From Bolinopsis microptera (Eukaryota; Ctenophora; Tentaculata; Lobata; Bolinopsidae): a DNA stretch of 64,000 bases. The position numbers and the translations under genes were made by a program. The notes below the pieces were generated by a model. It made no database searches. It was not told the DNA's origin and worked only from the letters and a program-made list of their open reading frames with translations. The DNA is taken from assembly GCF_026151205.1 (NCBI RefSeq), contig NC_087080.1, forward strand, positions 567,812-631,811, written 5' to 3'. Positions 5,275 to 60,987 of the stretch are shown here, one piece after another. Within the stretch, counting starts at the first letter, position 1; each line of letters begins with the position of its first letter.

Positions 5275-6052
5275 CCATTGCTCTAAGCCCGCCTCTATGT
5301 TGTCATGATGACAAGTATTGCTTTAAGCCTGCCTCTACTTTGTCATGGTGACAAGTATAAAATAATACTCTAAGCCTGCCTCTACATTGTCATGGTGAAA
5401 AGTATAAAATAATACTCTAAGCCTGCCTCTACGTTGTCATGGTGACAAGTATAAAATAATACTCTAAGCCTGCCTCTACATTGTCATGGTGAAAAGTATA
5501 AAATAATACTCTAAGCCTGCCTCTACATTGTCATGGTGACAAGTATTGCTCTAAGCCCGCCTCTACGTTGTCATGGTGACAAGTTTACAATATTACTCTA
5601 AGCCTACCTATACGTTGTCATGGTGACAAGCATTACTCTAACCCTGCATCTCCGTTGTCATGGTGACAAGTATAAAATATTAATCTAATCCTGCCTCTAA
5701 GTTGTCATCGTGGCAAGTAATACTCTAAGCCTGCCTATACGTTTTCATGATGACAAGTATAAAATATTACTCTAAGCCTGCCTCTACGTTGTCATGGTGA
5801 CAAATATTACTCTAATCATGCCTCTACGTTGTCATGGTGACAAATATTACTCTAAGCATGCCTCTACGTTGTCATGGTGACAAGTATTACTCTAAGCCAG
5901 CCTCTACGTTGTCATGGTGACAAGTATTACTCTAAGCCTGCCTCTACGTTTTCATGGTGACAAGTATTACTCTAAGCCTGCCTCTACGTTGTCATGGTGA
6001 CAAGTATTACTCTAAGCCTGCCTCTACGTTTTCATGGTGACAAGTATTACTC
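5275..6052. repeat. ~41-bp minisatellite with GTTGTCATGGTGACAAG core
   Basis: About 18 imperfect units alternate CTCTAAGCCTGCCTCTACG with GTTGTCATGGTGACAAG, a palindrome close to the RFX X-box. Unit length varies through insertion of short A/T-rich linkers (TATAAAATA). Confidence 0.93.
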
Positions 6053-6893
6053 TTAGAAATAGGAGTAGCACCGTTTACATAATAATTCATCTTGCTTACT
6101 GTGGGGTACACTTAATAATTCATCTTATCAGATAAAATAGGCTGAGCTGCGAATCGTTTGATTTTTATCACTTATAATTGGTGTTAAACAAGTATTTACC
6201 CTAGAAGTTGTATCTATCTTTTACTTGTTGTTATTACCAAGTTTCCAGTTCTATTACTTGTCAGCGTTATAAGATAACAAACATACTACGCCGCTGGTTT
6301 GGGATACCTTCTCTGCTACACAGAGTCAGCTATCTCTGCTGCTACATATTACACTGTAAAACTAACTCTTTATCCTTTTTAATATACTTTTGTTATAAGT
6401 TATAACACAGTTATAACACAGAGTTTAATATACTTTTACCCACATTTCAACACGAGCCGCTCACTGATAAAGATGAAATACTCTAGTAGCAGGGTGCAGT
6501 TGAGTGTGATAAAGATGAAATACAAATGCATTCATTTCTTTTTTAATTTCTTCGTACGAGACAAATAGCGTTTTATAACACTATTCTTAGTGTTAATTTT
6601 AAATGATGGGCTACATAAGTTGTTATCAGTGGCGTAACGTTGCCATGGTAACGTTATCAGTGGCGTTACCATTAGTTTCATTACTTTTTATATAATCAGA
6701 TCTGTTGGGATACAAGTTGATCATTATTGCTATTCTAGACAAATGTTAAGTTAGTATGAGCACATTAGGCCAGCACTCTCCCAAATGAAGCGGTGTGTAC
6801 TCAGTACTACTACTAATGAAATAGTAGTAGTAAATACTCTAGTAGCAGGGTGTAGTTGCGGTGTGTGCTCCTTTGTAAATTATTCTTTCTCAG
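6053..6893. other. Intron-like sequence before the kinase-domain exon
   Basis: No convincing exon is seen. A 22-bp imperfect palindrome centred on GTTGCCATGGTAAC lies at 6635-6656. Short open frames at 6208 and 6785 show no recognisable domain. Confidence 0.5.
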
Positions 6894-20502
<13,609 letters not shown>

Positions 20503-22021
20503 GAAACCCCTTCTCGCTGGGGAGCTCTTCTACTGACCAGATTTTTACGTTTTCTAGACCTCCTGTCATCCTGATATTATCCTGATACTATCTTGTTGTC
20601 CGTTACCATGGTGACTGAAGTTCACCCCATGATCAAATCAGTCTCCGTGATCCGAATCAAGTGATCATCATCACTTACTGGTTGTTATGGTTTCAGCGTG
20701 CTGGAAACTTGTAAAGTCCGACTTACTTATCAAGAGTTGCCTTAGTTACCGATTACCAGTGATTAGTTGTCATGGTTGCCATGGCTTCTGGTTACTTGTT
20801 GCCATGGTTACCAGTTACTTGAATGAGACGAGTTAAGAGTTGTTTAGAGTTTGTGTTACTGGTTCCTGGTTCCCATGGTGATGTTAGCAGTTGTTTTAGT
20901 AAGTCTGTGATGTGTGTTTTGTAAATTGATTCAGAAATATAAAATGAAATCGGTGATTTTTTATATGCGATATTTCAAGACTGTAATATCAAAAACTGTA
21001 CATTAAATTTTTAATTCTATGTTGATAGACACTGTTAGATTCCTCGACAATTGTATAGTAATGTTACCATAGTTACTAATTTTACTAGTTACTAGTAAAT
21101 CCTTACCTGCATAGTGCATAGTAACCTTAACTTAGTTTACTTTATTTAAATTCTAAGTCTAATTCCCCGATTTTGTGTAAGCGGGTTACGATCGCTAAAT
21201 GCTCTTCCTGTTCACATTCAAATCAAACTTAAAAGAGAGAATTGCAAATAATTATAAACGCTAAATAATTGCAATATCTCAACTTACCAGCTCTACCTAA
21301 CGTACACTACATAAAGTGGCTATGACCAGGAATTTGACGCTAGAATTTGTTGTAAAAACTGACCTTTGAGCTGTGCAGGTCGAAACATTTTATTTTAGTT
21401 GTGTATGTCGCTCATTTCACCATTAACTTAATAATCAACTGATGATACTAGTTCCATATTTATTGATATTTTTGACATTACTTTTTTGATTGTTAGAAAT
21501 CGAAAGTACACTTCAAGCGACGATTATACATTTGTTGTGTATATAGTAACTTTTTAGCCCTTACTACGACTGTTAGTAATGTATTTAGCACAGGGCTGAG
21601 ATACTAATAAGAATAAAATTTATTATAAAGGAGTATCATTTATACGAAACATGTTATCTATTTGAATTTAAAATTGCGAAATCTTATATAAGTAACGCTT
21701 TTCAATTAGTTTGAGTTGCCTAATCCTAACAAAATGATTATTTTGCTGCTAGCAAGAGCTTTGATTTAAACGACACGGTTATAAATGAGCCCTCAATACT
21801 GTAGCTGTACTTGTGACCTAGATATTTAAAATAGAGGAGACGCTTCCTGACGTGCCCTCGTCAACCTCCCATATCCGTGAGAGAAGCTGGGTGTATAGTA
21901 GTAGTAGGTAGTACTAGTAGTAGTACTAGTAAGTATAATTACCGGATGGGGTGTTGTGTTCCGAGTTTATAGGTTTATTTGCACGTGCAGGGCTATACTG
22001 GTTTAGCTATAATAGCTCTAG
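20503..22021. other. 3' UTR and intergenic sequence
   Basis: No coding exon is seen. Several isolated X-box-like palindromes (for example GTTACCATGGTGAC near 20600) occur. The first clear AATAAA on the + strand is at 21612-21617, a candidate cyclase poly(A) signal. Confidence 0.4.
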
Positions 22022-22423
22022 GTTAGGGGGGGGGGGGGTTGACGGATGTTACTCGTCTAAATTTCTTCGAAGTAGCGCGCGCCGCTTTCTTCTCGAAAGA
22101 GCTACGAAGTAGCGCGCGCCGGGTCAGATCATTAACAATGGTCAAGGGGGGGGGGGGGGGGGGGGCCATTGGTTTTTTTTGTGAAACTTGATTTCGAGAT
22201 AGCAGTTGACCGAACTTTTGAGGGGGTCCCGGACCCGAACCGCCAAACGGAGCCTGCGGGGCAGCCACGCCCATATTTGGTCCAAATTAGGCCCAATTTA
22301 GCCAAAATATTGAGACCGTCGACGAGACTAACTTTGACATACGTTGCATGCCACTTTTCGCGCGCAAAGCGCGCGCCGCCGATATTGGGATACGAAACAT
22401 GTATCAAGACTAACTTTGACGCG
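22022..22423. repeat. GC-rich dispersed repeat with poly-G tracts
   Basis: Two G runs (22026-22038 and 22146-22166), duplicated GAAGTAGCGCGCGCCG, and a segment (about 22180-22310) containing GTGAAACTTGATTTCGAGAT and GCCCATATTTGGTCC. That segment recurs in diverged form at 61095-61245, so it is an interspersed family. ORFs here are not credible. Confidence 0.6.
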
Positions 22424-25257: not shown

Positions 25258-25261
<4 letters not shown>

Positions 25262-25655: not shown

Positions 25656-26455
25656 TAGGTTACCATGGTTACTTGGTAGGTTATTAACCTACAAGTAGAA
25701 GGCACTAGTATAGATATTAGATGGTAGTGGTAGACGTGTGGTGCGACATACCAGCCACACGCAATTAACCTTTCTTCCCCCTTCAAATAATATCTTTCTT
25801 TTAGCTGAAAATCCGGATATAAAACTGTTTAAGATAATATTAATCATTTGTAAAAATACAGAAATAAATTTGTAAAAATTTCGAAAGTTCGCTCAACTAA
25901 AAATAAATCCTAAATATTCAGCAATTTCCCCCTTGCTACGTCATCAACAAGACAGCAAATCAATATTTTAAATGTTGAAACTGAGTAAACAGATTCAATT
26001 TTATAGTGACAGTAAACTGCAGTTTACTGTAATTATAGAAAAGTTTACTACAATAAGTGTTACCATGGTTACACTTATTGTAGTAAACTGAACAGTTTAA
26101 CTTTACTTACTGTGAAGAAACGGAGCTCCCAAGCTCGAAATATCGTTTACTTTAAGACAATGACCAAGAGATATACTCAAAGATAAGAATTATACTCAAT
26201 ACTAGAAAGCTAGAAGATAAGAATTATACTAGACAATATTGAATAAAAGTGCGCAAATTATTCTAGGAAAGATTGACAAAAATTAAATATATAAGCTACA
26301 TTGATTATCCCAACATGACATATTCGATAACGCCGGATAATGCATAATTACATTTTTATAGAAAAGATTCAAAGGTATACTGGCCTTATTTAGAGAAATA
26401 AACCAAAGTCATGACAACTATAAAAGTATAAAGATCGCATTGCCATGACAACATG
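25656..26455. other. Region between convergent genes, with palindromes
   Basis: No coding exon. A perfect 22-bp palindrome lies at 26009-26030 (ACAGTAAACTG/CAGTTTACTGT). A ~50-bp near-perfect palindrome at 26042-26090 has arms AGTTTACTACAATAAGTGT around TACCATGGT. Both could be part of the 3' region of the phosphatase gene. Confidence 0.6.
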
Positions 26456-26594: not shown

Positions 26595-29500
26595 CTGTGA
26601 GAATACACTTCATTATACACTTATACAGCTGTGTTGTTGTTGGTCATGTGTTACCATATTTACATGTGATACTCAATGTCATATGTTACCATAGTTACAT
26701 GTGATACTCAATGTCATAATGTGTTACCATGGTTACATGTGATACTCAATGTCATGTGTTACCATAGTTACATGTGATACTCAATGTCATATTGTGTTAC
26801 CATATTTACATGTGATACTCAATGTCATATTGTGTTACCATATTTACATGTGATACTCAATGTCATATGTTACCATAGTTACATGTGATACTCAATGTCA
26901 TATTGTGTTACCATATTTACATGTGATACTCAATGTCATGTGTTACCATAGTTACATGTGATACTCAATGTCATATTGTGTTACCATGGTTACATGTGAT
27001 ACTCAATGTCATGTGTTACCATGGTTACATGTGATACTCAATGTCATGTGTTACCATAGTTACATGTGATACTCAATGTCATGTGTTACCATAGTTACAT
27101 GTGATACTCAATGTCATGTGTTACCATGGTTACATGTGATACTCAATGTCATGTGTTACCATGGTTACATGTGATACTCAATGTCATATTGTGTTACCAT
27201 GGTTATATGTGATACTCAATGTCATGTGTTACCATGGTTACATGCGATACTCAATGTCATGTGTTACCATGGTTACATGTGATACTCAATGTCATGTGTT
27301 ACCATGGTTACATGTGATACTCAATGTCATATTGTGTTACCATGGTTACATGTGATACTCAATGTCATATTGTGTTACCATGGTTACATGCGATACTCAA
27401 TGTCATATTGTGTTACCATGGTTACATGTGATACTCAATGTCATATTGTGTTACCATGGTTACATGTGATACTCAATGTCATATTGTGTTACCATGGTTA
27501 CATGCGATACTCAATGTCATATTGTGTTACCATGGTTAGATGTGATACTCAATGTCATATTGTGTTACCATAGTTACATGTGATACTCAATGTCATGTGT
27601 TACCATAGTTACATGTGATACTCAATGTTATATTGTGTTACCATGGTTACGTGACGTGATACTCAATGTCATATTGTGTTACCATGGTTACATGACGTGA
27701 TACTAACCTTCTGAATTGCTCCAACACAGGGGGGATATCTTCCTTGTGGAAGTCGTGCTGTTGGCACAGTATGTTGCAATACTCGTATGTTATACTCATA
27801 CTAGTCCGGTCTTTAGCACTCTTGCACGATGTGAACCGCACACATCCTATATCCCGCCCTATCTGGTCATATTATCACGTTTAAAATCGGATGTTAACAA
27901 ATGTAAAAGAATAAAAATAAGAATAAAACAAGCTTAATATAATATAAATGTTTAAAATGAGTGCAGAAGTTTGTGTTACCATGTGTTACCATGTGTTACC
28001 ATGTGTTACCATGTGTTACCATGTGTTACCATGTGTTACCATAGTTACATGTGAAGTTTGTTACCTGCTCTGCGAGGACGATGAAGTCGGAGCACTTTCC
28101 CCGCTTAGTAGCTTTGAAAAGATACTTCAGTTTCTCAACATTACTCGTCAGACCATTCTCAACCTGACAAATTAGTCTTCACAGAGGAAACCAATAATTC
28201 ACTTTGATAAAATATTGGTAAATGCAAAACTACAAATGTCACATACGTTGTAAAATGAGTTTTAAAAGCTACCTTAAAATCAAATACACAGATGTTGGGA
28301 GTGATGTGTTTATCAATGTAAAACTGTAAGTCCTCCAGAAACTGTTCGCATATCTTGTCTTGCTGTCCTGTCTCGTTAATTCTGCAAAGTTGTCAGGGTT
28401 TAAAGATCTGCCCCCTTAAAGGGGAGTCACTGCAGCGTGTCTGCCCCCTTAAAGGGGAGTCACTGCAGCTTGTCTGCCCCCTTAAAGGGGAGTCACTGCA
28501 GCTTGTCTGCCCCCTTAAAGGGGAGTCACTGCAGCGTGTCTGCCCCCCTTAAAGGGGAGTCACTGCAGCGTGTCTGCCCCCCTTAAAGGGGAGTCACTGC
28601 AGCGTGTCTGCCCCCTTAAATGGGAGTCGCTGCAGCGTGTCTGCCCCCTTAAAGGGGAGTCACTGCAGCGTGTCTGCCCCCTTAAAAGGGAGTCACTGCA
28701 GCGTGTCTGCCCCTTAAAAGGGGAGTCACTGCAGCGTGTCTGCCCCCTTAAAGGGGAGTCACTGCAGCGTGTCTGCCCCCTTAAAGGGGAGTCACTGCAG
28801 CGTGTCTGCCCCCTTAAAGGGGAGTCACTGCAGCGTGTCTGCCCCTTAACGGGGAGTCACTGCAGCGTGTCTGCCCCCTTAAAGGGGCTTCACTGCAGCG
28901 TGTCTGCCCCTTTAAAGGGGCGTCACTGCAGCGTGTCTGCCCCATTAAAGGGGAGTCACTGCAGCGTGTCTGCCCCCTTAAAGGGGAGTCACTGCAGCGT
29001 GTCTGCCCCCTTAAAGAGGAGTCACTGCAGCTTGTCTGCCCCCTTAAAGGGGAGTCACTGCAGCGTGTCTGCCCCTTTAAAGGGGCGTCACTGCAGCGTG
29101 TCTGCCCATTAAAGGGGAGTCACTGCAGCGTGTCTGCCCCTTTAAAGGGGAGTCACTGCAGCGTGTCTGCCCCTTTAAAAAAACGTAAAAGATATACAAA
29201 AACCGTAAAAGATATACAACTTGACTTTTTTGACTGGTTCAAATGCTTTAATGGCCTTCAAATCAGCATGAAAAAATAAAAAATTGGCCAATGAATAAGA
29301 ATATTAGTGCCCAAAATTTGGACCCCCAAGTGGTGTCAAAAATGCGAAACTAATTATTTTAGTCTCTCGAGTCTTGACACCACTTTAGGGTTAGACGGGT
29401 TCCTGTTAGTGATTATAAACAACTAGCAGAGCCTTTTTTACAAGATATTAAACTAATTTCTTTAAAAACTAACTTGTAGGCGATGGTTTGTTGCTCGTTA

Positions 29501-41500: not shown

Positions 41501-44500
41501 ACACAAAATGCAGTACTAACAAACATGAAGCTAATGAGAGTAACTCGCGGCAGAGCCCTCGATACAAATAATATTACTATGGTTACTGTGGTTACTATGG
41601 TTACAAATACGAATAAAGCAAACGGTAAAGGAAAATACCAAACAACTAGTATAGGGGGAGTAATAATATGAAAATATTTAAGTGTGAAATCGCTTAACTA
41701 CCTATGAAGTATCCATTGAAACAGTCAATTAAAAGATTAAACATGACCCCCGGCCCCCCCGCCCCATAATTCCCAACCTCGTTCTTATTTTCGCACGGTA
41801 TTTTACGCCTTTTTAAAAACTATTCATTTCTCAATAAGTAACACGGACAAAATACGTTTCAATCTATTACATTGGTTGGTTCTTGCAAACATGTTATTAT
41901 TTTTCTTCCTAATAGTAAGGGACAATAAGCATAAATATAAAACCCCTGGGAACTAATTTGCCACCAGCATTTTCGGACAGGAATGTGTTATCCATAAGCA
42001 GGGAGGTTACCATAGTTACTATTGTCCCAGGCACTAACCCAAATACTCGCAATTCTCATATCATGGCTGGCAGATGATGATTTGAAAGTGCTAATATTTT
42101 TAGAGTTGTGGTCGATGCAATAATTATAAAGGCGAAAGTGCCATTTTTGCGGGAAAATGCGTAAGTCTTTCGACGACGACTAGAAAAAGAATTATTTTAG
42201 GGCATATGTTGGGTGTTGTTCTTCATAAGTTGTATATAAATATGGCCTCTGCGAACATTTCGCACTTATTTGGAAGTCTCTGTGGAGCAGGGAGGTTACC
42301 ATAGTTATTATTTGTAAGCAGGGAGGTTACCATAGTTACTATTTGTAAGCAGGGAGGTTACCATAGTTACTATTTATAAGCAGGGAGGTTACCATAGTTA
42401 CTATTTGTAAGCAGGGAGGTTACCATAGTTACTATTTGTAAGCAGGGAGGTTACCATAGTTACTATTTGTAAGCAGGGAGGTTAACATAGTTACTTTTTG
42501 CTCTATATAGATTTCAGCATACTCATTGAGTATCTTGCGTTACTCGATACAGTTGTTACTAATACTCAATAACCTTACTATATTAAGACAACATACTATT
42601 ATGGTAAGGTTCTTATGGGTATTCTGAAATTGTGTTAATCAAATTACAGCTATCAAGATTCAGATTAAATATTTTACGACGAATTTTATTCCAAACAAAA
42701 TATATAACCGTAAAATAGTTTAATGCGTTAATGAAACCGGAGAAAATATGAACGAGTTCCAGGAAATCCCAGTATAGACAGGTTACTGTGGTTACTATGG
42801 TTACTGTGGTTACTATGGTTACTACAGTATATAGATGTTAACACTATAATGAAATGTAACTATGTTAAAAGGACCGGGCGCTTGCCAGCGCTGTTAAGGG
42901 TAATGTCCTAGAATTGCTTTAATACTATCTTACTATGGCCACACAAGGTCTGAACGTTATCAAATTGCTTGTTCACACGGACAATAGAGAGACAAATGTA
43001 AATCAGTAACTTGTTCTGATAATACAAGATACGACAATACAAAGCAGCAAATAAGTAACTAATAATACTATATATATAATACGCTAAAACTAACTGTATA
43101 AAGCAAGCGCCAGCTAGTTACAGGGAAGTACATATAAAAATGAGTCTAGGAAAATATTTTGAAACGTACTGTGAAGAATTGCTACGTTGTAAACACTAAA
43201 AAATCACGATAGACTGATACAGCAACTACGTAACAGTGTGACTCACAGGACAGCGGCCTTGCATCCTACACTTCATGTAGGATGCAGGATTACTGTAGAT
43301 AGACTTGCGTCCTACATGTAGGGTTGCATGTAGAAAGACACTACCTACCCCCAGCAGATGTGAAGATTCACAAACAAGTGGCAAATTATGTATATCGCTG
43401 AAACAGTGGCCTATTTTAGAAGTTTTGTCACACTTATAAAGTTATAACAAGTTAAAATAATATGCCTACTCAACTCAGCTGACTACTCAAGCGAAACCGA
43501 GATATCTTTTAAACAAGGCGCGCTGACAACAGACCAACCCGCTAATGTTGCGGGGGACAACACACCAACCTGCTAGTAGTCTGACACGTTTAGAGGGGGA
43601 CAACACACCAACCTGCTAGTAGTCTGACACGTTTAGAGGGGGACAACACACCAACCTGCTAGTAGTCTGACACGTTTAGAGGGGGACAACACACCAACCT
43701 GCTAGTAGTCTGACACGTTTAGAGGGGGACAACACACCAACCTGCTAGTAGTCTGACACGTTTAGAGGGGGACAACACACCAACCTGCTAGTAGTCTGAC
43801 ACGTTTAGAGGGGGACAACACACCAACCTGCTAGTAGTCTGACACGTTTAGAGGGGGACAACACACCAACCTGCTAGTAGTCTGACACGTTTAGAGGGGG
43901 ACAACACACCAACCTGCTAGTAGTCTGACACGTTTAGAGGGGGACAACACACCAACCTGCTAGTAGTCTGACACGTTTAGAGGGGGACAACACACCAACC
44001 TGCTAGTAGTCTGACACGTTTAGCGGGGGACAACACACCAACCTGCTAGTAGTCTGACACGTTTAGAGGGGGACAACACACCAACCTGCTAGTAGTCTGA
44101 CACGTTTAGCGGGGGACAACACATCAACCTGCTAGTAGTCTGACACGTTTAGAGGGGGACAACACACCAACCTGCTAGTAGTCTGACACGTTTAGCGGGG
44201 GACAACACACCAACCTGCTAGTAGTCTGACACGTTTAGAGGGGGACAACACACCAACCTGCTAGTAGTCTGACACGTTTAGCGGGGGACAACACACCAAC
44301 CTGCTAGTAGTCTGACACGTTTAGAGGGGGACAACACACCAACCTGCTAGTAGTCTGACACGTTTAGCGGGGGACAACACACCAACCTGCTAGTAGTCTG
44401 ACACGTTTAGAGGGGGACAACACACCAACCTGCTAGTAGTCTGACACGTTTAGAGGGGGACAACACACCAACCTGCTAGTAGTCTGACACGTTTAGAGGG

Positions 44501-53500: not shown

Positions 53501-56500
53501 CTAGTAGTCTGACACGTTTAGAGGGGGACAACACACCAACCTGCTAGTAGTCTGACACGTTTAGCGGGGGACAACACACCAACCTGCTAGTAGTCTGACA
53601 CGTTTAGAGGGGGACAACACACCAACCTGCTAGTAGTCTGACACGTTTAGAGGGGGACAACACACCAACCTGCTAGTAGTCTGACACGTTTAGAGGGGGA
53701 CAACACACCAACCTGCTAGTAGTCTGACACGTTTAGAGGGGGACAACACACCAACCTGCTAGTAGTCTGACACGTTTAGAGGGGGACAACACACCAACCT
53801 GCTAGTAGTCTGACACGTTTAGAGGGGGACAACACACCAACCTGCTAGTAGTCTGACACGTTTAGCGGGGGACAACACACCAACCTGCTAGTAGTCTGAC
53901 ACGTTTAGAGGGGGACAACACATCAACCTGCTAGTAGTCTGACACGTTTAGAGGGGGACAACACACCAACCTGCTAGTAGTCTGACACGTTTAGCGGGGG
54001 ACAACACACCAACCTGCTAGTAGTCTGACACGTTTAGAGGGGGACAACACACCAACCTGCTAGTAGTCTGACACGTTTAGAGGGGGACAACACACCAACC
54101 TGCTAGTAGTCTGACACGTTTAGCGGGGGACAGAAAACTTATCAAACCTAAAACAAGAACGTATCTATAACATAATCAAATGGAACTGAAGACATATTAA
54201 CCATAACATAAAACACTAATGGTTAAAAGGAAAGAAGGAAGGAAGGGTATGGCTACAGCACTTGTGTATATTCGCTACAGCACCTGTGTATATTCGTTAC
54301 AGCACGTGTGTATATTCGCTACAGCACGTGTGTAGCTATGGTAACGTGTGTATATTCGCCACAGCACGTGTGTAGCTATGGTAACGTGTGTATATTCGCC
54401 ACAGCACGTGTGTAGCTATGTTAACGTGTGTATATTCGCTACAGCACGTGTGTAGCTATGGTAACGTGTGTATATTCGCTACAGCACGTGTGTAGCTATG
54501 GTAATGTGTATATTCGCCACAGCACGTGTGTAGCTATGGTAACGTGTGTATATTCGCTACAGCACGTGTGTAGCTATGGTAATGTGTATATTCGCTACAG
54601 CACGTGTGTAGCTATGGTAACGTGTGTATATTCGCCACAGCACGTGTGTAGCTATGGTAACGTGTGTATATTCGCTACAGCACGTGTGTAGCTATGGTAA
54701 CGTGTGTATATTCGCCACAGCACGTGTGTAGCCATGGTGACGTGTGTATATTCGCTACCTGGAGGAGATAATATCTCTGATAGTGATCACACATTTGTTT
54801 AGACTGGGAAACATAAATGTGCGAGGTTATAAATATAGCAGGGGGGGGGGGCGTCAATCTCATAAACATACATAAATACCTTATACATATACCTATTTTG
54901 AAATCGGAGGGAATAATAGGTATTTATAGGCATTTATACCAAATATCGTCTAGGGCAGCTAAAAGTTACTTATTGAAATTTTAGGTGAAAATATCATGAC
55001 AAGATTTTTACTTAAAAATGTTTGATAAAAATTGGTTTTAAAACTTGATATCAACCCCCTCATGCAGTCAAAACACTTTTAAACACTTAGAATTGAATAT
55101 AGTGTGTTAAAAGTGGGAAAAATACTGAAAAAACAACAAAACCTTTAAATAACCATAAATTTATACATAAATACCTATATACCTATTTTGAAATCGGAGG
55201 GAATTACAGGTATTTATGAGGTTGATGCCCCCCCCCCCCCCCTATACTTATAGCTACTAATTATAGGTATTTATGAGGTTGATGCCCCCCCCCCCCTATA
55301 CTTATAGCTACTAATTATAGGTATTTATGAGGTTGATGCCCCCCCCCCTATACTTATAGCTACTAATTATAGGTATTTATGAGGTTGATGCCCCCCCCCC
55401 TATACTTATAGCTACTAATTATAGGTATTTATGAGGTTGATGCCCCCCCCCCCCTATACTTATAGCTACTAATTATAGGTATTTATGAGGTTGATGCCCC
55501 CCCCCCCTATACTTATAGCTACTAATTATAGGTATTTATGAGGTTGATGCCCCCCCCCCCCCCTATACTTATAGCTACTAATTATAGGTATTTATGAGGT
55601 TGATGCCCCCCCCCCTATACTTATAGCTACTAATTATAGGTATTTATGAGGTTGATGCCCCCCCCCCCCCTATACTTATAGCTACTAATTATAGGTATTT
55701 ATGAGGTTGATGCCCCCCCTATACTTATAGCTACTAATTATAGGTATTTATGAGGTTGATGCCCCCCCCCCCCTATACTTATAGCTACTAATTATAGGTA
55801 TTTATGAGGTTGATGCCCCCCCCCCCCCCTATACTTATAGCTACTAATTATAGGTATTTATGAGGTTGATGCCCCCCCCCCCCCCCTATACTTATAGCTA
55901 CTAATTAATAATTATAGGTATTTATGAGGTTGATGCCCCCCCCCCCCCCCCTATACTTATAGCTACTAATTATAGGTATTTATGAGGTTGATGCCCCCCC
56001 CCCCCCCTATAGCTACTGTTTTCCTTAGGTACTGATTGGGTGTCAGTTACTTGATGGTGACGAGTAGCTATGGTGACGAGTAGCTATGGTAACCTAAATT
56101 GCTCCAATACTGAGGCTGCTCTTATCGGTGTTTGGACTTGACCGATGTTAACACTTAATGAATTGGTATTGACGAAGATTAGTTAGATCAACTACCACAC
56201 CAAGAATGTACTTTTACAGGGTGATTGATATCCTCGACACAGACACCCTCTACCACCTCCAACCTCAACCTCCTCCACCCTCAACCTCCTCCAACCACCC
56301 TCCACCCCTCCCCTCCCTCCCTCCACCTCCTCCCCTCCAACTCCAACAATGTGAGAAAGCGAAACGAAAAGAAGAACAGGCTGTTACTGAGAAATATAAT
56401 ATAATGTGCACAGATGTCCAGGTAGCAGTATTTGAGCAGGTAGCAGCTTATTAAACTATTAACTATCAGAAGGTAGTTGCGAGTCTTGGTATGATAGTAA

Positions 56501-59500
56501 GCAATGACTAATATATATAATATATATGACAATAGCGACTCTAGAGTGTAGACCCAACGTACAGGACATGCGGACAAGCACACTTGTTTAACGCACTTCA
56601 ATTTACTATTGTTTTTAGCCCACGCTTAAAATCTTAAAATCTCATTTACACGACAGTAAAAGTAATTCATGTTAACTTTAAACAGAAAGGCTTCTAACAC
56701 TGGGTCAGATCGCCGAGATCTCACCGTCTAGTAGACTTATCAGACGGTAAACTGCTTGTCTTGTATATAATATTACGTCACTCACATAATATTATTAAAT
56801 CAAATTTGCAAAACCACTCAGGTGTGATGTGATGCCCAGATAGTATTCGTATATATACAGTATAATATAGTATATAGTACAGTTTCCCAGATATTTAGAG
56901 CCTTATTACTTAATGAATTACACAGTTGTAGAATCTAATGAGTTGCCTAATTGGTTACTAGCAAAGTGACAACTTTTTACCAGAAACAGAGTCTCACTAC
57001 AAATAAATATGGGCTCTAAATAATTGACCCCTCCCTACATCTTGTACAAAATACTGGATGATCTTGACACTAAAACTAAAATACAATAAAAAGAAGAGGC
57101 AACCTGTTATCATAGCAACTCGTAAACATAGCAACATGTCACCATGACAACACGTCACCATGGCAACACGTCACCATGGCTACCCGTCACCATAACAACC
57201 CGTTGCCATAGCAACACGTTACCATACCAACACGTTACCATAGCTACACGTTACCATAGAAACACGTTACCATAGCAACACGTTACCATGGTAGAGATTT
57301 CAGCAAACAGGTCGCAACACTGCCACTCAACACTGTACAGCTAATAAAAAGTTATACACTTTATATTAAGTTATACACCAGCCAGTCTACAGACCTATGT
57401 AGTATGTAGTTCTATAGGTATTGAACTTTCTGCAGGTATTAAATTTACGACCGGAGCTGAATTCCTAGCGTGCCGGGGATATGTTACCATAGTTACAAGG
57501 AAATAACCATGGTAACAAGGGATATGTTTTTACTTGCAGCGACACGACTCATTGATGCACTCGTTGAAGCACTCAACTGAAGCACTCACTGAAGCACTCA
57601 CTGAAGCACTCACTGAAGCAGTCAACTGAAGCACTCATTGATGCACTCGTTGAAGCAGTCAACTGAAGCACTCATTGATGCACTCGTTGAAGCACTTAAC
57701 TGAAGCACTCAACTGAAGCACTCATTGATGCATTCGTTGAAGCACTCAACTGAAGCAATCAACTAAAGCACTCAACTGAAGCACTCAACTGAAGCACTCA
57801 TTGATGCACTCGTTCAAGCACTTAACTGAAGCACTCACCGAAGCACTCACTGAAGCACTCAACTGAAGCACTCATCCAAGCACTCACTGAAGCACTCACT
57901 GAAGCACTCAACTGAAGCACTCACTGAAGCAGTCAACTGAAGCACTCAACTGAAGCACTCATTGAAGCACTCACTGAAGCACTCAACTGAAGCACTCAAC
58001 TGAAGCACTCAACTGAAGCAGTCAACTGAAGCACTTAACTGAAGCACTCAACTGAAGCACTCATTGATGCACTCGTTGAAGCACTCAACTGAAGCACTCA
58101 TTGATGCACTCGTTGAAGCACTCAACTGAAGCACTCATTGATGCACTCGTTGAAGCACTCAACTTAAGCACTCACTGAAGCACTCACTGAAGCACTCACT
58201 GACGGGTCTGTACTTTATGGACCCTTTCTAGATACTAGTAATATCTTATTCCATTAACTTAATTATAGAGGATAATTTATTAACTTAATAAGTTATAGTA
58301 TAAATTATATCACACTACTAATGTAGTTTACAGTTTAGTTCACTAATTTCTGGTTCCATCTCCGGTAAGTAACGTCAAAATGTTTAACAAAATGAGAAAC
58401 AGTGTAAAGTTATAGACTGATGCGAAACAATATAGTGTAAAATTATAAACTGATGCGAAAGAATACAGCGAATGAATATAAATGTAATGCAAGAAAAGTT
58501 TAATTTTGCCAACAAAGAAGAATTTATCATACTAGTAACCACATATTATAAAGTACTTAAGTACAAAGAAACTTTAAAAACAAACACTCAGAAGCAGGGA
58601 GCCAACAAAAAGCGGTGGAATTGTTTTGAGAGGGACTTAAACATTACCTTATAAAGTAATGTTACCATGGTAACACTACCATATAAGGTAATGTTCTTGA
58701 CTTGAGTCCCCTCTCTGATAACGTGACCGATAGTCCCTTCTGTTGTGTGAAGTAACAAAAAGTATCGCTAGCAGACATGTGGCGATAACAAGCAGTCAAT
58801 ATCCACAACTCTTCCTTCTCAAACAATCCTCATCTTTATATTAGAAAATATTCATACTGATCAGGAATTTAACCGCACAATGCTATCTATTCTTATTGGT
58901 TAAAATATAGAGTTGGTTTGCGGTTATTATGTTTTCATTTGAGGTCAGGTGAATACTGTCGACAGTGTCTCGGAGTAAATGTTTACTCGCGCGGCATTAC
59001 GAAAACCTATAGAATAACGTGTACTCCTTCATAAATATTCCCTTATAAAAAGGGAGAAATTTCCATAAAACTGTAGGCCAAACCACGAAAGTATTTGAAG
59101 TCTCTCTAATTATTCCTCAGTTATAACAAAAGTGTTGTAGAGTGAAGTTGTAATGTAGTTACCGTGATTATTCAAGAAATATTTTCACAGGACGGTGTCG
59201 CGGTGTGCTTAGTGTGCTACTCACCTCACAACAACAGGTCAGAGACAGACGGGACTGTTACCATGGTTACTTATGTTGGGATTATTCAAATTAGCAGTAA
59301 TTTATTCAGACACAAAACCATTTAATATTCAGAAAGGGACCCGGTTGTTTGCGTATACCGAGGGAATATCTGTTACCATGGTAACGCCCTGTATTATAAC
59401 AGAACGATATTTGTACTATTTTCGTCTGGCATAATCCGGAGTGAACTTTGAATATTTTATATAAGTTGTATCTTACTTAACATGTTCAGATAACTACTAT

Positions 59501-60987
59501 ATAGGTATCAAATCTCAACAAGCCTTCTAAAATATGTGGGGAAAAGGACAAGGTCAGCTTCTTTGATTTCATATTATATGAAATTCCTATTTCCCTAAAT
59601 CCCACTTCTCGAAGTTTTTAATTTTCCAATTTTTCGCTCTCGCTATAATGCAGTACATATCGTTACCATAGTAACCATATCGTCAATCTTTCACAAGCTG
59701 ATAAGCATGAAATGTAGATAATATCTATATTATATAGAATGTTAGATCCTCTAACAAAACACATTTCACTTCTAAATATACAGGATAAAGAAGTAATTAC
59801 AATAAAAATCGCAGTTTATAGGGATCCTATACAATTATAAAGTAACCACGGTTGCCGCGTTGCTATGGTAACTAACCTGTACCATGGACTGAAGTATGAT
59901 CATGTTATTATAGTTAATTATAAAGTAACCACGGTTGCCGCGTTGCTATGGTAACTAACCTGTACCATGGACTGAAGTATGATCATGTTTTTATGCTCCC
60001 TCTCGCACAGTAGTCGGATATAAAGAGCAGGTATGTTAAAGGAGGTAGCTAGCTCAAACATCTCCTCACTAACACGCAGGCTACGTGATAGTTGTTGTCT
60101 GAAAAAGCGTTTAGCAACAGGGAGTAACCATAGTAACAAGGGAGTAACCATAGTAACAAGGAGTATTTATCAAAGTAACAAGGGAATAACCATAGTAACA
60201 AGGGAATCACCATGCTAACAAGGGGCTACCTAATGTTTGCGCAATTAAAGGGGTAAAAGTGACAAAATTTCAAAATATAGTATATGTATGGAATGCAAAA
60301 GGAGAGTTGCCATGGAAACAATAAGTAAAAATATATCTATTCGGTTAAACTTACCTTAAATTGAAGTGATACCTCTGTCTATTGATATTTCCCAACACAT
60401 CCCTGAAAGATACTATTAAACGAAGGGCCGATGATTTGCCAACTTTAATCATAGTATATATGTAGTATAGTAGTATAGTAGTAGTATATAGTATAGTAGG
60501 GTATAGTAGTATAGTACTTATACTATATAATAAGAAAACACTATGTTTTTTGTTGTGAGCGTTGAAATATACAAGTCAGTAGTGATGTCGCCCAAAGGTA
60601 ATTATATAATTAGTCTAACGATTGAAAGTAGTCATGAAAACGATGTTTCAATTTTCACAACTACAATTAATTACATTTATTGAGGTGATAATCCCTGGTG
60701 GATGGCCGTAAAAAGGGATTATCACCTCAATAAATGTAATTAATTGTAGCTGTGAAAATTGAAACATCGCTTTCATGACTACTTTCAATAATACTATGTT
60801 TACAGTACAATCTTCACTTTTCTAAATCTGAAATACGCTGTATATAGTAATAATTGTAGTAACCATGGCAACCATAATAACCATAGTAACCATAGTAACA
60901 ACTCACTTGAAGTGTGTGTTCTTGTAATCGTCCTCGTTGTAACTCATCTGAGGAGTTAATTTTGACAGCATGTTCCTCAACATAGCT
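26456..60987 (-). CDS. INPP4: INPP4-family PI(3,4)P2 4-phosphatase, C-terminal 630 aa
   Basis: Fifteen exons with AG/GT borders and matching phases: 60907-60987, 60355-60402, 59960-60098, 38933-39146, 37590-37679, 36615-36751, 36365-36460, 35158-35286, 34560-34685, 34305-34439, 29474-29670, 28273-28381, 28065-28163, 27708-27862, 26456-26594. Family motifs in order: WAPVNLHAQ, LTVGAWCGHWDKFKNGGL, FESLLSTHGDESGMLEDM, FNHGINEQQTIA, the catalytic CX5R in FTSCKSAKDRTSMS, and the C-terminal YKPPPGTFG. The enzyme removes the 4-phosphate of PI(3,4)P2 in PI3K signalling. The N-terminal C2 domain is upstream, beyond the right edge. The family is about 920-980 aa, so roughly two thirds is present. The gene carries a nested Kv channel and several satellites in its introns. 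Confidence 0.93.
26640..27706. repeat. ~36-40-bp satellite, GTTACCATGGTTAC core, abutting a donor
   Basis: About 27 units with TGTTACCATGGTTACATGTG and ATACTCAATGTCAT. On the minus strand the array starts at the 5' splice site of the catalytic exon. Its unit (GAGTATCACATGTAACC) resembles the first bases of that intron (TTAGTATCACGTCATGTAACC in two parts). ORFs across it are artefacts. Confidence 0.95.
27708..27862 (-). CDS. INPP4: INPP4 catalytic exon (CX5R)
   Basis: Acceptor ATATGACCAG, phase 0 start; IGRDIGCVRFTSCKSAKDRT. C-K-S-A-K-D-R is the P-loop of INPP4 phosphatases (nucleophile Cys, phosphate-binding Arg). Ends AGAAG/GTTAGT in phase 2. Confidence 0.96.
27970..28052. repeat. TGTTACCATG decamer repeat
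   Basis: Seven or eight copies of the half X-box sequence lie just downstream (minus strand) of the donor of the exon at 28065. Confidence 0.95.
28065..28163 (-). CDS. INPP4: INPP4 exon
   Basis: 33 codons, phase 0 at both ends (TTTGTCAG acceptor, GAGCAG/GTAACA donor); ...KRGKCSDFIVLAEQ, running in frame into IGRDIGCVRFTSC. Confidence 0.92.
28273..28381 (-). CDS. INPP4: INPP4 exon
   Basis: Acceptor CTTTGCAG, donor TTTAAG/GTAGCT. One base completes Lys; then INETGQQDKICEQFLEDLQF. Phases fit both neighbours. Confidence 0.88.
28408..29175. repeat. 33-bp satellite with CCCCTTTAAAGGGG-like hairpins
   Basis: About 23 units, each with CCCCCTTAAAGGGGAG followed by TCACTGCAGCGTGTCTG. The CCCCTTAAAGGGG palindrome can form a hairpin in every unit. 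Its ORFs (PLKGESLQRV-type) are periodic artefacts. Confidence 0.96.
29474..29670 (-). CDS. INPP4: INPP4 exon with GINEQQT motif
   Basis: Acceptor TTCTCCCTCAG, donor TACAA/GTTAGT, phase 2 at the end. Contains TFFPLFFNHGINEQQTIAYK, corresponding to the highly conserved FNVGINEQQTLAE stretch of INPP4. Confidence 0.95.
29733..34320. repeat. 38-bp X-box satellite seeded by an exon-intron junction
   Basis: About 120 units over 4.6 kb: TGCCATGGTTACCTGGACTG plus TAATATCTTATCTAGTGT, with longer variants (GTTTAGTGTTACC, GTTAACTGTATAATTTAA). Blocks recur at larger scale: the variant CTGACCTGTAATATCG reappears at about 29997, 30711 and 31637. On the minus strand each unit reads GATATTACAGTCCAG/GTAACCATGG, the exact end and donor of the exon at 34305. 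Confidence 0.96.
34305..34439 (-). CDS. INPP4: INPP4 exon (FESLLST motif)
   Basis: 45 codons, phase 0 at both ends. Contains LSDLVIPVMFESLLSTHGDE followed by SGMLEDMQ, matching the QYEGLLSTYSDEIGMLEDM region of INPP4. An in-frame acceptor 9 nt further in (34430) is an alternative. Its last 15 bases and donor are the seed of the adjacent satellite. Confidence 0.94.
34560..34685 (-). CDS. INPP4: INPP4 exon
   Basis: 42 codons, phase 0; REHFLNLLNRFEACFSQLLS then AVVSGFIVSL, corresponding to the FSQALAGLVCGFI region of the family. Confidence 0.9.
35158..35286 (-). CDS. INPP4: INPP4 exon
   Basis: 43 codons, phase 0; acceptor GATTTTCAG, donor ACTCAG/GTTACC (weak). TLSADLEKIVANIKVTSKET and helical sequence; less conserved, placed by phase and order. 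Confidence 0.85.
35298..36312. repeat. 28-bp X-box satellite, about 36 copies
   Basis: Units ATGTGATGTCATGTGTTACC + ATGGTTAC, with GGTTCCAGATA variants. The array ends about 12 bases from the acceptor of the exon at 35286. Confidence 0.96.
36365..36460 (-). CDS. INPP4: INPP4 exon
   Basis: 32 codons, phase 0; VSDLILLSKEKVTRTALEGL. Acceptor CTTTGCAG, donor GAAATT/GTGAGC. Confidence 0.87.
36615..36751 (-). CDS. INPP4: INPP4 exon
   Basis: Two bases complete the Asp codon from 37590; then GDKFSERREKYRVLKKVEAL. Ends phase 0 at GATATT/GTAAGT. Confidence 0.88.
36853..37605. repeat. 84-bp repeat carrying copies of a splice donor, 9 units
   Basis: On the minus strand each unit contains AAAG/GTAAGTCTTT, CTAG/GTAAAAG and AAAG/GTGAGTAACC plus two X-box-like sites. 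The unit overlaps the true end of the exon at 37590 (TTTACTGG/GTAAAAG). The 249-codon + strand ORF across it is a periodic artefact. Confidence 0.94.
37590..37679 (-). CDS. INPP4: INPP4 exon (FKNGGL motif)
   Basis: Poly-T acceptor ATTTTTTTCAG. Split codon T/GT, then SRDHYCLLTVGAWCGHWDKF and KNGGLLSLL, matching the family TVGAPAAH.QGFKNGGL. Ends phase 1. Confidence 0.93.
37806..38915. repeat. 12-bp repeat GGGGGAGCTGAA, about 92 copies
   Basis: Purine-rich, strand-asymmetric array, all units in register (GAAGGGGGAGCT with rare GAAGAGGGAGCT). Because 12 is a multiple of three, it is open in several frames on both strands, giving ORFs of 347-471 codons that are not genes. It starts 18 bp past the donor of the exon at 38933. 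Confidence 0.97.
38933..39146 (-). CDS. INPP4: INPP4 exon (VNLHAQ motif)
   Basis: Acceptor CTACAACAG, donor TCTT/GTGAGT, phase 0 to 1. GFSEEVSSIAAVSRATKISQ ... SEYKWAPVNLHAQVLEVST; the PVNLHAQ segment matches FVPINLHLQRM of INPP4. Confidence 0.92.
39147..39879. other. Intron sequence 3' of the nested channel gene
   Basis: No exon. Isolated GTTACCATGGTTAC copies near 39259 and 39530 and short ACTGGTAACT repeats (39790-39860). An 86-codon minus-strand frame at 39352-39612 has no recognisable features. Confidence 0.5.
39880..41286 (-). CDS. Shaker-like voltage-gated K+ channel, intronless
   Basis: 468 aa from the ATG at 41286 (AATATGG context). The frame is open further upstream (ATGs at 41328 and 41484), but those residues look like UTR. 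T1 tetramerisation domain about 69-156 (ICVSGRVFEL, FFFDRNR); S1 about 192-210; S2 226-247; S3 257-276; S4 290-312 with arginines every third residue (LFRMARVARCLKLIRR); S5 326-350; pore with TIGTIGYGNI (filter about 374-379); S6 384-411 with VPM instead of PVP; short C-terminus. It opens on depolarisation at the plasma membrane to pass K+. TIGYGN replaces the usual TVGYGD. It lies in an INPP4 intron, same strand. Kv1-type by T1 domain; exact subfamily unknown. Confidence 0.95.
   Translation of the reverse strand: MASNNMSTTIIATMTTEQQHCRSRASDKMLDMSRDNSPMLGNHGNRDYNFLYPGLQPLSVPSPLSSNGCLKICVSGRVFELTLDQVKRYPDSLLADPDKMAEYYLPALGMFFFDRNRYVFEHIMQFYQTSDGYMEFPDDIPCQLLEIELDFYKIGHRSIKRTEESEEEPVLTVWDKGRRFFNDPGFNVFAKSWMALDIFFIIISVITFVLKTEDVIQLYEEQHYELHLFFWVTTIFCAVFFTVDLGGRLVFCKNKYRFFLEMMPWLDIIAIIPLYVEIFERYLDLRGDLLNILKLFRMARVARCLKLIRRSKKLILIFQILRECKEELSLLLLVWATGTLISGSIMFYVEERANSARFYSILESCWWAITTIGTIGYGNIRPVTAVGLFLTTAIIFCSMIFMTVPMTIIIRRFSDSYEKVERLKTDVKLFGTAPLKTSSWSVSDGIPSLNNNSWAKINDTSRSKSSRF
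41287..42284. other. Upstream region of the Kv gene
   Basis: No other gene seen. Contains GTTACTATGGTTAC variants near 41580 and a C-rich tract near 41745. It would hold the channel promoter; I see no clear TATA-like site. Confidence 0.4.
42285..42500. repeat. 31-bp repeat with TTACCATAGTTACT, 7 copies
   Basis: Units AGCAGGGAGGTTACCATAGT + TACTATTTGTA. A single copy also lies at 41998-42025, outside the array. Confidence 0.93.
42501..43539. other. Intron sequence with small hairpin
   Basis: No gene seen. Alternating GGTTACTGTGGTTACTATGG near 42780; a hairpin with 10-bp stem GCATCCTACA/TGTAGGATGC and 5-nt loop at 43261-43285. Confidence 0.5.
43540..50106. repeat. 43-bp satellite, first block (~153 copies)
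   Basis: Units GACAACACACCAACCTGCTA + GTAGTCTGACACGTTTAGAGGGG. Nearly identical throughout; almost all variation is at one base (TTTAGA versus TTTAGC, rarely TTTAGAT) and CTAG versus CTGG. No ORF. It lies in the long INPP4 intron. Confidence 0.98.
50107..51611 (+). mobile_element. ORF1-only LINE-like insertion in the satellite
   Basis: 1.5 kb of non-satellite sequence: five ~20-bp 5' repeats (GTGTGCAATCAATCTTT, 50107-50208), one ORF, a 3' UTR ending in a CCCCACGGGG hairpin, and an AAAC-rich tail (51589-51611). The satellite stops at CAACCTG and resumes at AGTAGTCTG, so about 2 bp were lost and no target duplication is visible. No reverse transcriptase is present. Confidence 0.8.
50301..51143 (+). 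CDS. LINE ORF1-like nucleic-acid-binding protein
   Basis: 280 aa from the first ATG. An N-terminal helical region and probable coiled coil (about 60-110), then an RRM-like fold: RSKNFIIFGAPE (141-152), RSRPIKVTLRDPEIVREFL (198-216), a short linker, LYLSPDRSQDERISRQKL (236-253) and KKYYIKNNKVCV at the end. This is the pattern of ORF1 proteins of many invertebrate non-LTR retrotransposons, which bind the element RNA. The ORF is intact, suggesting recent insertion or selection. Family not assigned. Confidence 0.75.
   Translation: MEFSVSTLHELEKQIEDLSDSVLANLNCRKLEDLTHDLFKPKGVTKDVITEIVLKMGSMICKSRNVLRSAAETLDQQKSEQIKTQNELIQCKSGKLASVKETVKTEMKLFTDVVKNNSVASDISPAKIKMAVKSAITEDDRSKNFIIFGAPEQLECEEQEMNERDLVGDIWGFMKFIGRPTITNIERVGVKKSDSPRSRPIKVTLRDPEIVREFLSRAKVLKSVDVADYNFNYNKLYLSPDRSQDERISRQKLVQEMKEGIKKDPSKKYYIKNNKVCVAE
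51612..54132. repeat. 43-bp satellite, second block (~58 copies)
   Basis: Same unit and same A/C variation as 43540-50106, resuming after the LINE-like insertion and ending in TTTAGCGGGGGACAGAAAAC. Confidence 0.98.
54240..54752. repeat. ~40-bp repeat: CACGTG plus CTATGGTAAC, 12 copies
   Basis: Units ACAGCACGTGTGTAGCTATG + GTAACGTGTGTATATTCGCT. Combines an E-box and a half X-box; the ORF is periodic. Confidence 0.95.
54753..55209. other. Non-coding sequence before the poly-C array
   Basis: No gene. Two copies of ACCTATTTTGAAATCGGAGG (about 54891 and 55178) bracket the stretch. Confidence 0.5.
55210..56012. repeat. ~55-bp repeat with length-variable poly-C, 14-15 copies
   Basis: Units TATACTTATAGCTACTAATT + ATAGGTATTTATGAGGTTGATG, then 7-18 C. 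Sequence is otherwise almost invariant; only the C run changes. Confidence 0.96.
56217..56421 (+). CDS. Possible proline-rich/coiled-coil exon
   Basis: Bounded by CTTTTACAG and GTCCAG/GTAGCA and open in one frame: VIDILDTDTLYHL, a proline-rich run, then CEKAKRKEEQAVTEKYNIM. It lies antisense within the INPP4 intron. The proline run may simply be C/T-rich repeat; no partner exons found. Confidence 0.2.
56422..57095. other. Non-coding intron sequence
   Basis: A/T-rich; no gene, no clear repeat. Confidence 0.5.
57096..57292. repeat. ~15-bp repeat CACGTTACCATAGCAA, 13 copies
   Basis: Degenerate units (CGTCACCATGGCAACA, CGTTACCATAGCAACA), each an X-box-like site. Confidence 0.92.
57545..58203. 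repeat. 14-17-bp repeat GAAGCACTCAACT, about 40 copies
   Basis: Units GAAGCACTCA(A)CT with ATTGATGCACTCGTT variants arranged in recurring triplets. Confidence 0.95.
58472..58654 (+). CDS. Small Myb/SANT-like ORF, probably transposon-derived
   Basis: 60 codons: NFANKEEFIILVTTYYKVLK then KETLKTN, and KKRWNCFERDLN. This resembles the Myb/SANT (zeste-type) DNA-binding domain common in invertebrate transposon ORFs (NF...E...L..LV..Y...L..K.TN...K...W). It stops right after the domain. Likely a TE remnant in the INPP4 intron, antisense. Confidence 0.4.
   Translation: MNINVMQEKFNFANKEEFIILVTTYYKVLKYKETLKTNTQKQGANKKRWNCFERDLNITL
58655..59832. other. Intron sequence with isolated X-box palindromes
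   Basis: No gene. Perfect GTTACCATGGTAAC at 58661-58674 (inside ATTACCTTATA...TATAAGGTAAT arms) and 59372-59385; GTTACCATGGTTAC near 59258. Confidence 0.5.
59833..59990. repeat. Tandem duplication of an exon end and donor
   Basis: Two 75-bp copies (59833-59907 and 59916-59990). Each contains GGTAACTAACCTGTACCATG, the complement of the exon end and donor GGTACAG/GTTAGTTACC. Only the 59960 copy is joined to the full exon. Confidence 0.93.
59960..60098 (-). CDS. INPP4: INPP4 exon (SFNIP motif)
   Basis: Acceptor GCTTTTTCAG, donor GTACAG/GTTAGT. Encodes QQLSRSLRVSEEMFELATSF and NIPALYIRLLCEREHKN, aligning with REQMSES..SFHIPKELISLHIKED of INPP4. Ends phase 0, matching the exon at 39146 across a 20.8 kb intron. 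Confidence 0.82.
60355..60402 (-). CDS. INPP4: INPP4 48-nt exon
   Basis: Acceptor CTTTCAG, donor TTTAAG/GTAAGT; DVLGNINRQRYHFNLR in the only stop-free phase, fitting both neighbours. Confidence 0.78.
60621..60789. repeat. 75-bp inverted repeat (foldback/MITE)
   Basis: Arms 60621-60695 and 60715-60789 match at all but a few positions (ATTGAAAGTAGTCATG...GATAATCCC and complement), with a 19-nt spacer. It would fold into a long hairpin in the INPP4 pre-mRNA. Confidence 0.93.
60907..60987 (-). CDS. INPP4: INPP4 exon, most upstream recognised
   Basis: Acceptor GTTGTAG, donor TTCAA/GTGAGT, phase 2 to 2. MLRNMLSKLTPQMSYNEDDY, then KNTHFK. Assigned by phase and by continuity with the next exon; family similarity is weak here. 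Confidence 0.7.

What the first reader, a model, noticed from the sequence alone, without database searches (positions are those of the whole stretch)
5275..60900. One RFX-like palindrome is the core of about ten unrelated tandem arrays
GTTACCATGGTAAC and near forms (GTTGCCATGGTTAC, GTCACCATGGTGAC, TTACCATAGTTAC) form the core of arrays at 5275, 26640, 27970, 29733, 35298, 36853, 42285, 54240, 57096 and near 60120. The rest of each unit differs completely. The RFX/X-box consensus (GTTRCCATGGYAAC) is the known match. Hypotheses: RFX sites with selected copy number; a palindrome that provokes local re-replication or slippage and so seeds satellites; or footprints of a palindrome-targeting element.
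Basis: partly seen in the sequence, partly recalled or inferred. Interest (0 to 1): 0.8.

Follow-up and report, generated by a model that had tools for sequence, protein, structure and literature searches.

The report
X-box-like core shared by minisatellites
In what looks like a comb-jelly genome, one 14-letter DNA word resembling the binding site of the RFX proteins that control cilia genes sits in many otherwise unrelated tandem repeats, which suggests that a bound protein site may seed such repeats.

Summary
All ten listed places are tandem arrays carrying GTWRCCATGGYWAC or near forms. Exact GTTACCATGGTAAC occurs three times in the window, never inside an array; the commonest array form is GTTACCATGGTTAC. 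Of 16,384 possible 14-bp palindromes, two forms of this motif lead in arrays hit (two mismatches allowed): 15 and 14 of 47 in the window, 6 and 6 of 108 in an independent 180-kb sample, where the margin is narrow (next 4). Genome-wide, GTTRCCATGGTWAC occurs 3168/3278 times against 3/1 for its reversed-letter control. Outside arrays, half-site pairs are in excess only inverted at spacing 2 and in an overlapping 9-bp direct form. Motif columns inside arrays are not clearly more conserved than the rest, and two-copy duplications already hold it (7 of 42), so the link probably arises when arrays are seeded. RFX is the likeliest reader: an RFX domain 41/61 identical to human RFX1 is encoded, and one of two tektin upstream regions has a perfect X-box; binding is untested. 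Karyotype and size match Bolinopsis microptera. Closest precedent: the Jeffreys minisatellite core (recalled).

The parts
5277..6053 (.). ~40-bp array, 18 copies, core GTTGTCATGGTGAC
20341..20436 (.). 36-bp array, 2.7 copies, core GTCACCATGGTGAC
20775..20821 (.). 23-bp array, 2 copies, consensus core GTTGCCATGGCTAC
26646..27694 (.). 38-bp array, 28.6 copies, core GTTACCATGGTTAC
27972..28053 (.). 10-bp half-site array TGTGTTACCA with one near-full motif at 28035
29782..34319 (.). 38-bp array with longer-period structure, 108.7 copies, cores GTTGCCATGGTTAC and GTTACCATGGTTAC
35300..36307 (.). 28-bp array, 36 copies, core GTTACCATGGTTAC, unit related to 26646
36845..37603 (.). 84-bp array, 9 copies, two cores per unit (GTTACTATGGTTAC and GTAACCATGGTTAC)
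41574..41604 (.). 9-bp half-site array TTACTATGG
42286..42500 (.). 31-bp array, 6.9 copies, core GTTACCATAGTTAC
42781..42824 (.). 9/18-bp half-site array GGTTACTAT
54263..54758 (.). 40-bp array, 12.4 copies, core GTAGCTATGGTAAC
56054..56090 (.). 16-bp array, 2.3 copies, cores GTAGCTATGGTGAC and GTAGCTATGGTAAC
57106..57289 (.). 16-bp array, 11.5 copies, unit is almost only the motif (GTTACCATAGCAAC plus AC)
59833..59994 (.). 83-bp tandem duplication, 2 copies, X-box-like cores in the unit
60119..60224 (.). 20-bp array, 5 copies, core GTAACCATAGTAAC
60857..60899 (.). 9-bp half-site array TAGTAACCA
11192..11205 (.). isolated exact palindrome GTTACCATGGTAAC within a 24-bp palindrome
26059..26072 (.). 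isolated GTTACCATGGTTAC at the centre of 17-bp inverted arms
58661..58674 (.). isolated exact palindrome between 14-bp inverted arms
59372..59385 (.). isolated exact palindrome GTTACCATGGTAAC

Best explanation
The motif is a sequence-specific protein-binding site, most likely the X-box read by an RFX factor, that acts as a shared minisatellite core: short segments (about 15-90 bp) containing one site are tandemly duplicated far more often than other DNA, and some then grow into long arrays. SHOWN: excess in arrays, in window and independent sample; genome-wide excess of the word; inverted half-sites at spacing 2 outside arrays; information confined to 14 bp with unrelated flanks; presence already in two-copy duplications; array ends rarely inside the motif; no clear extra conservation of the motif inside arrays. 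INFERRED: that RFX binds it, and that occupancy (for example a fork barrier, open chromatin or break-prone bound DNA) raises the local duplication rate. By part: shared core real about 0.95, RFX as reader about 0.57, seeding rather than selection about 0.5.
For: Leads 16,384 palindromes by arrays hit: window 15 and 14 of 47, sample 6 and 6 of 108. 22 of 144 arrays vs mean 0.16, maximum 5 in 199 permuted controls. The 8- to 10-mers shared by most arrays are mainly pieces of the motif. Genome counts 3168/3278 vs 3/1, GTTGCCATGGCAAC 123 vs 0, GTTGTCATGGCAAC 48 and 50 vs 0. Inverted spacing 2: 14 isolated pairs and 11 arrays; other inverted spacings to 25 bp have 0 or 1 isolated pair. Sharp 14-bp limits on 34 isolated sites preselected at <=1 mismatch. 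Two-copy arrays (under 2.5 copies): 7 of 42 hold it, 5 of 34 in the sample where my arithmetic expects about 0.1. Motif columns diverge 0.058 vs 0.061 for the rest. RFX domains at C9 and C4, 41 of 61 identical to hRFX1. GTTGTCATGGCAAC about 180 nt 5' of a tektin ATG.
Against: GTTACCATGGTTAC has one half with T where the recalled RFX consensus wants A, and the 9-bp direct arrangement is also in excess (10 isolated pairs, 9 arrays). X-box found in only 1 of 2 tektin regions; just before that tektin's ATG the sequence looks like a splice acceptor (by eye), so the box may lie in a 5' intron; two further fetches lay within genes. Chance expectation for the box in 900 bp is 0.018 at sample density but 0.15 at window density, 0.04 and 0.45 for the looser consensus. 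In the sample 0 of 34 arrays of 2.5-5 copies and 0 of 11 of 15 or more copies hold the motif. The sample margin over unrelated palindromes is small (6 vs 4 at two mismatches, 4 vs 2 at one), and outside arrays in the sample AT-rich palindromes outrank it. Direct repeats beside isolated sites are weak when stratified: P 0.06 and 0.008 for 10 bp or more, 0.09 and 0.04 for 8 or more. Motif divergence is lower in 12 of 19 arrays, higher in 5, so weak selection is not excluded. No binding data.
Confidence: 0.4

Rival explanations
1. Homotypic clusters of RFX sites kept by selection: more sites give stronger regulation, so duplications containing a site are retained.
For: Motif is X-box-like; many sites in differing contexts at 57-62 kb; motif divergence lower than the rest in 12 of 19 arrays, higher in 5.
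Against: Pooled divergence is equal (0.058 vs 0.061); array copies with altered motifs persist (for example GTTACCATATTTAC); no expression or accessibility data.
Confidence: 0.2
2. The same seeding, but the reader is another sequence-specific protein (zinc-finger protein, recombination initiator or origin factor) whose site resembles the X-box.
For: W at half-site position 3 and the overlapping 9-bp direct arrangement fit RFX imperfectly. Ctenophore-specific looping zinc-finger proteins exist, but their motif is GC-rich (PMC12221973, passages).
Against: A perfect X-box upstream of one tektin and an RFX1-like domain in the genome make RFX the simplest reader.
Confidence: 0.2
3. Common descent: a few satellites dispersed and diverged, keeping or exposing the same core.
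For: Units at 26646 and 35300 are related; GTTACCATGGTTACGA recurs at 27-bp multiples on C2, C4 and C122.
Against: Only 3 of 105 unit pairs reach p<=0.01; isolated sites share nothing beyond 14 bp; 13 of 16 fetched GTTACCATGGTTACGA singletons lie in unrelated contexts.
Confidence: 0.1
4. Insertion footprints of an element that targets or carries the palindrome.
For: One interspersed repeat accounts for 17 of 20 fetched GTTACCATGGTAACGA sites; 12 neighbouring pairs among the 50 listed GTTGCCATGGCAAC sites are 1236-1283 bp apart; 4-bp repeats within 2 bp of the 14-mer at 9 of 40 sites vs control 0.080.
Against: Immediately adjacent repeats of 4 bp: 1 of 40 vs control 0.0135, and of 6 bp within 2 bp: 3 of 40 vs 0.042 (control not masked for arrays). 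The element's flanks gave no blastn hit in window or sample.
Confidence: 0.06
5. Palindrome structure (hairpin or cruciform) alone causes slippage.
For: Two isolated window sites are centres of longer inverted repeats (26059, 58661); the 5277 core can fold at -1.5 kcal/mol.
Against: Unrelated palindromes do not show it overall; GTTACCATGGTTAC folds at 0 and GTTACCATGGTAAC at only -1 kcal/mol.
Confidence: 0.04

Closest known systems
Jeffreys minisatellite core and the human PRDM9 13-mer (recalled, no call)
   Same: One short word shared by many otherwise unrelated tandem arrays, proposed to act at seeding or instability.
   Different: Here the word is an AT-richer inverted-repeat X-box-like site, not a G-rich or C-rich word; no recombination data.
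RFX X-box (RYYNYYATRRNRAC / GTTRCCATGGYAAC; consensus recalled)
   Same: Inverted half-sites, spacing 2, central AT; canonical forms occur genome-wide and upstream of one tektin.
   Different: The main array form has GTWRCC half-sites (T or A at position 3) and sits in minisatellites.
CENP-B-box-like motif shared by divergent Meloidogyne satellites (PMC3694981, abstract and outline)
   Same: A conserved short motif in satellites of low overall identity, proposed to promote array rearrangement.
   Different: There the motifs are components of monomer junctions; here array ends rarely lie in the motif. Different sequence.
Helitron-borne tandem heat-shock-factor sites in C. elegans (recalled, no call)
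   Same: A transcription-factor site multiplied in tandem repeats and mobile DNA.
   Different: Here spacers are mostly unrelated between arrays and I identified no carrier element for the arrays.

Membership tests
RFX X-box site | Two inverted half-sites at fixed spacing of 2 | tested here: met
   14 isolated pairs and 11 arrays at inverted spacing 2; 0 or 1 isolated pair at the other inverted spacings to 25. The direct 9-bp form is also in excess.
RFX X-box site | Both halves GTTRCC / GGYAAC | tested here: inconclusive
   Met by 123 GTTGCCATGGCAAC sites, by the fetched GTTACCATGGTAACGA sites and by 4 window sites; the commonest array form has one deviant half.
RFX X-box site | An RFX DNA-binding domain is encoded | tested here: met
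   three exon hits at two places; best match hRFX1 1dp7; 41 of 61 identical.
RFX X-box site | Found upstream of ciliary genes | tested here: inconclusive
   1 of 2 tektin regions; two DM10-gene fetches lay within genes.
RFX X-box site | Bound by RFX | not testable with these tools
   Needs DAP-seq, PBM or ChIP.
Shared minisatellite core (Jeffreys type) | Same word in otherwise unrelated arrays | tested here: met
Shared minisatellite core (Jeffreys type) | Array hypervariability or recombination activity | not testable with these tools
   One assembly only.
CENP-B box | 17-bp box containing CpG | tested here: not met
   By inspection only, against a recalled consensus: the 14-bp motif holds no CpG.
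Transposon insertion footprint | Target-site duplication flanking the 14 bp | tested here: inconclusive
   adjacent 4-bp repeats 1 of 40 vs 0.0135; with up to 2 bp slack 9 of 40 vs 0.080; 6 bp with slack 3 of 40 vs 0.042.

The most novel reading that the evidence does not exclude
In a ctenophore, occupied X-boxes are a dominant genome-wide seed of minisatellites: binding of a transcription factor causes local re-duplication of the bound segment, so that regulatory sites multiply mechanistically, without selection, and build site clusters and repeat-rich neighbourhoods.
Probability: 0.25. Interest if true: 0.85.

Novelty: new variant of a known kind. Interest (0 to 1): 0.6.

Why it matters
Why new minisatellites start where they do is largely open. 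A strictly defined word that is hugely over-represented in one genome and is the shared core of unrelated arrays makes that directly testable: if a factor binds it, occupancy can be compared with duplication rate. It would also offer a non-selective route to clusters of binding sites, in a lineage argued to be sister to other animals.

Tried and rejected
Generic palindrome effect: disfavoured by the 16,384-palindrome ranking (margin narrow in the sample alone) and by folding. Recombination between two motif copies, or breakage inside the motif: array ends fall in the motif in 4 of 30 cases (15 units of 20 bp or more) vs about 12 expected; requiring an intact motif in the unit favours this result. 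Selection on every copy: no clear excess conservation (arrays over 1500 bp were read only to 1500 bp). Flanking direct repeats as incipient duplications: pooled excess weakened when window and sample were separated. Insertion with target duplication: not seen for adjacent repeats, some excess of 4-bp repeats with slack. Subterminal bias: the partial listing looked end-biased on C1, but the single sites in the complete lists look spread; judged by eye, no test run. Ciliary promoter test: two informative regions only; the dynein family search did not complete. Proteasome hits were meant as a control and could not be used for lack of letters. Literature: the exact-word search gave 53 papers, 30 listed; by listing, two concern fly RFX/cilia genes and I saw nothing relevant in the rest. 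Searches combining RFX, X-box, tandem repeat, ctenophore, RFX/X-box with transposable elements and ctenophore with RFX and cilia (12 papers, 10 listed) showed, by title and abstract start, no paper on RFX sites in minisatellites; and the minisatellite/PRDM9 search returned nothing. Passages only were seen of PMC12221973, PMC10232365, PMC5838959 and PMC11184263. On re-check I lowered the main confidence from 0.42 to 0.40 and raised the insertion rival from 0.04 to 0.06, for the slack repeats, the possible splice acceptor and the narrow sample margin.

Full report
Setting. The window is C9:567812-631811 of a 264,652,675-bp assembly in 232 contigs. Thirteen contigs hold 258,070,895 bp, 97.5%. The ctenophore Bolinopsis microptera has 13 chromosome-scale scaffolds with 97.23% of bases and a k-mer size near 254 Mb (PMC10232365, passages), so I take the genome to be that species or a near relative; this is inference from karyotype and size. 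Genes seen: a voltage-gated potassium channel and guanylate cyclase exons.

Observation. TRF finds arrays at the ten listed places, and the motif or a near form is in them. The exact palindrome GTTACCATGGTAAC lies only outside arrays; arrays favour GTTACCATGGTTAC. Several further small arrays carry it. In the window 34.2 of 64 kb is array; in the sample 33.9 of 180 kb.

Sample. To avoid judging the window by itself I read 23 stretches chosen without reference to the motif: 13 of 10 kb at 1.0 Mb into each large contig, and 10 of 5 kb picked by hand, spread over contigs, from a random list of 80 drawn beforehand.

Excess in arrays. Among all 16,384 14-bp palindromes, GTAACCATGGTTAC and GTTACCATGGTAAC lead by arrays hit within two mismatches: 15 and 14 of 47 window arrays and 6 and 6 of 108 sample arrays, against means of 0.03 and 0.05. 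In the sample alone the next palindromes reach 4 (two mismatches) or 2 against 4 (one mismatch), so the margin there is narrow. With GTWRCCNNGGYWAC at up to one mismatch 22 of 144 arrays of period over 8 are hit; 199 permuted-half palindromes give mean 0.16, maximum 5. By copy number, motif arrays are: under 2.5 copies 2 of 8 window and 5 of 34 sample; 2.5-5 copies 3 of 9 (all of 9- or 18-bp period) and 0 of 34; 5-15 copies 5 of 11 and 3 of 21; 15 or more 4 of 16 and 0 of 11. The words of 8 to 10 bp shared by most arrays are mainly pieces of the motif.

Excess outside arrays. In window plus sample together, among words using all four letters, the commonest unmasked 8-, 10- and 12-mers are pieces of the motif. 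In the sample alone AT-rich palindromes outrank it there. Genome-wide counts are 3168/3278 vs 3/1, 123 vs 0 for GTTGCCATGGCAAC and 48/50 vs 0 for GTTGTCATGGCAAC.

Anatomy. On 34 isolated sites (<=1 mismatch, so the motif itself is preselected; a few lie close together) information falls to background right outside the 14 bp. Outside arrays half-site pairs are in excess inverted at spacing 2 (14; about 0.13 expected per spacing) and direct at a 9-bp shift (10), which the form GTTACCATGGTTAC nearly contains. A few arrays use spacing 1 (2 arrays; also C1:44625).

What carries it. I fetched 20 of the 81 GTTACCATGGTAACGA sites: 17 lie in one interspersed repeat, 3 do not. I fetched 16 of the 17 single GTTACCATGGTTACGA sites: 1 resembles that repeat, 2 resemble each other, 13 are unrelated; 2 of these read as possible coding sequence by eye and one has a second motif close by. 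Of 123 GTTGCCATGGCAAC sites 50 are listed, with 12 neighbouring pairs 1236-1283 bp apart; 2 of 4 fetched share flanks. Raw word counts are therefore not counts of independent sites.

How it might work. Two-copy arrays already hold the motif (7 of 42). Motif columns diverge as much as the rest (0.058 vs 0.061; lower in 12, higher in 5, equal in 2 of 19). Array ends are in the motif in 4 of 30 cases vs about 12 expected, though an intact motif in the unit is a condition of being counted. Together this favours an effect at seeding over selection on each copy and speaks against recombination between motif pairs. Direct repeats beside isolated sites are only weakly in excess. The absence of seeded arrays in two sample classes is unexplained by this reading.

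Who reads it. PF02257 gives three exon hits at two places, C9 and C4. The C9 exon is 41 of 61 identical to hRFX1 in 1dp7. Upstream of a tektin on C2 lies GTTGTCATGGCAAC, about 180 nt before the ATG; the other tektin region had none. A splice-acceptor-like stretch just before that ATG (by eye) means the box may be in a 5' intron. Strict sites would be expected 0.018 times in the 900 bp at sample density, 0.15 at window density. Two fetches upstream of DM10 hits lay within genes and say nothing.

Known and new. A core shared by unrelated minisatellites is a known idea (Jeffreys core, PRDM9 word; recalled), and motifs shared by divergent satellites are published for Meloidogyne (PMC3694981, abstract). 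My searches did not show an X-box-like core in minisatellites; the library lacks most subscription papers. I call it a new variant of a known kind.

Noticed in passing
12716-15514 (+): 932-aa open frame with GIY-YIG-like text near its start and reverse-transcriptase-like text, resembling Naiad Penelope-like elements (recalled); no Pfam hit at E 0.01.
   Followed up: partly
39880-41490 (-): Single open frame of a voltage-gated potassium channel (Pfam Ion_trans and BTB_2); the motif at 41152 lies inside it.
   Followed up: partly
43552-54132: Large 43-bp satellite interrupted by an open frame at 50247-51143 without Pfam hit.
   Followed up: no
L035-L054 (17 of 20): An interspersed repeat carrying the exact palindrome between CACGTG-containing flanks, on many chromosomes.
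   Followed up: partly
G000 C1:14850744, 14851987, 14853230 and others: GTTGCCATGGCAAC recurring at about 1243-bp spacing at many places, as if in terminal or tandem repeats of an element.
   Followed up: partly
63335-63879: 15-bp array AGGTAACGTATTGCC reads across units as half-sites with spacing 1 (ATTGCC-A-GGTAAC).
   Followed up: no
C1:44625-44843 (in L001): 16-bp array GTTACCAGGTTACTAG, half-sites at spacing 1, near a 53-bp array with the full motif.
   Followed up: no
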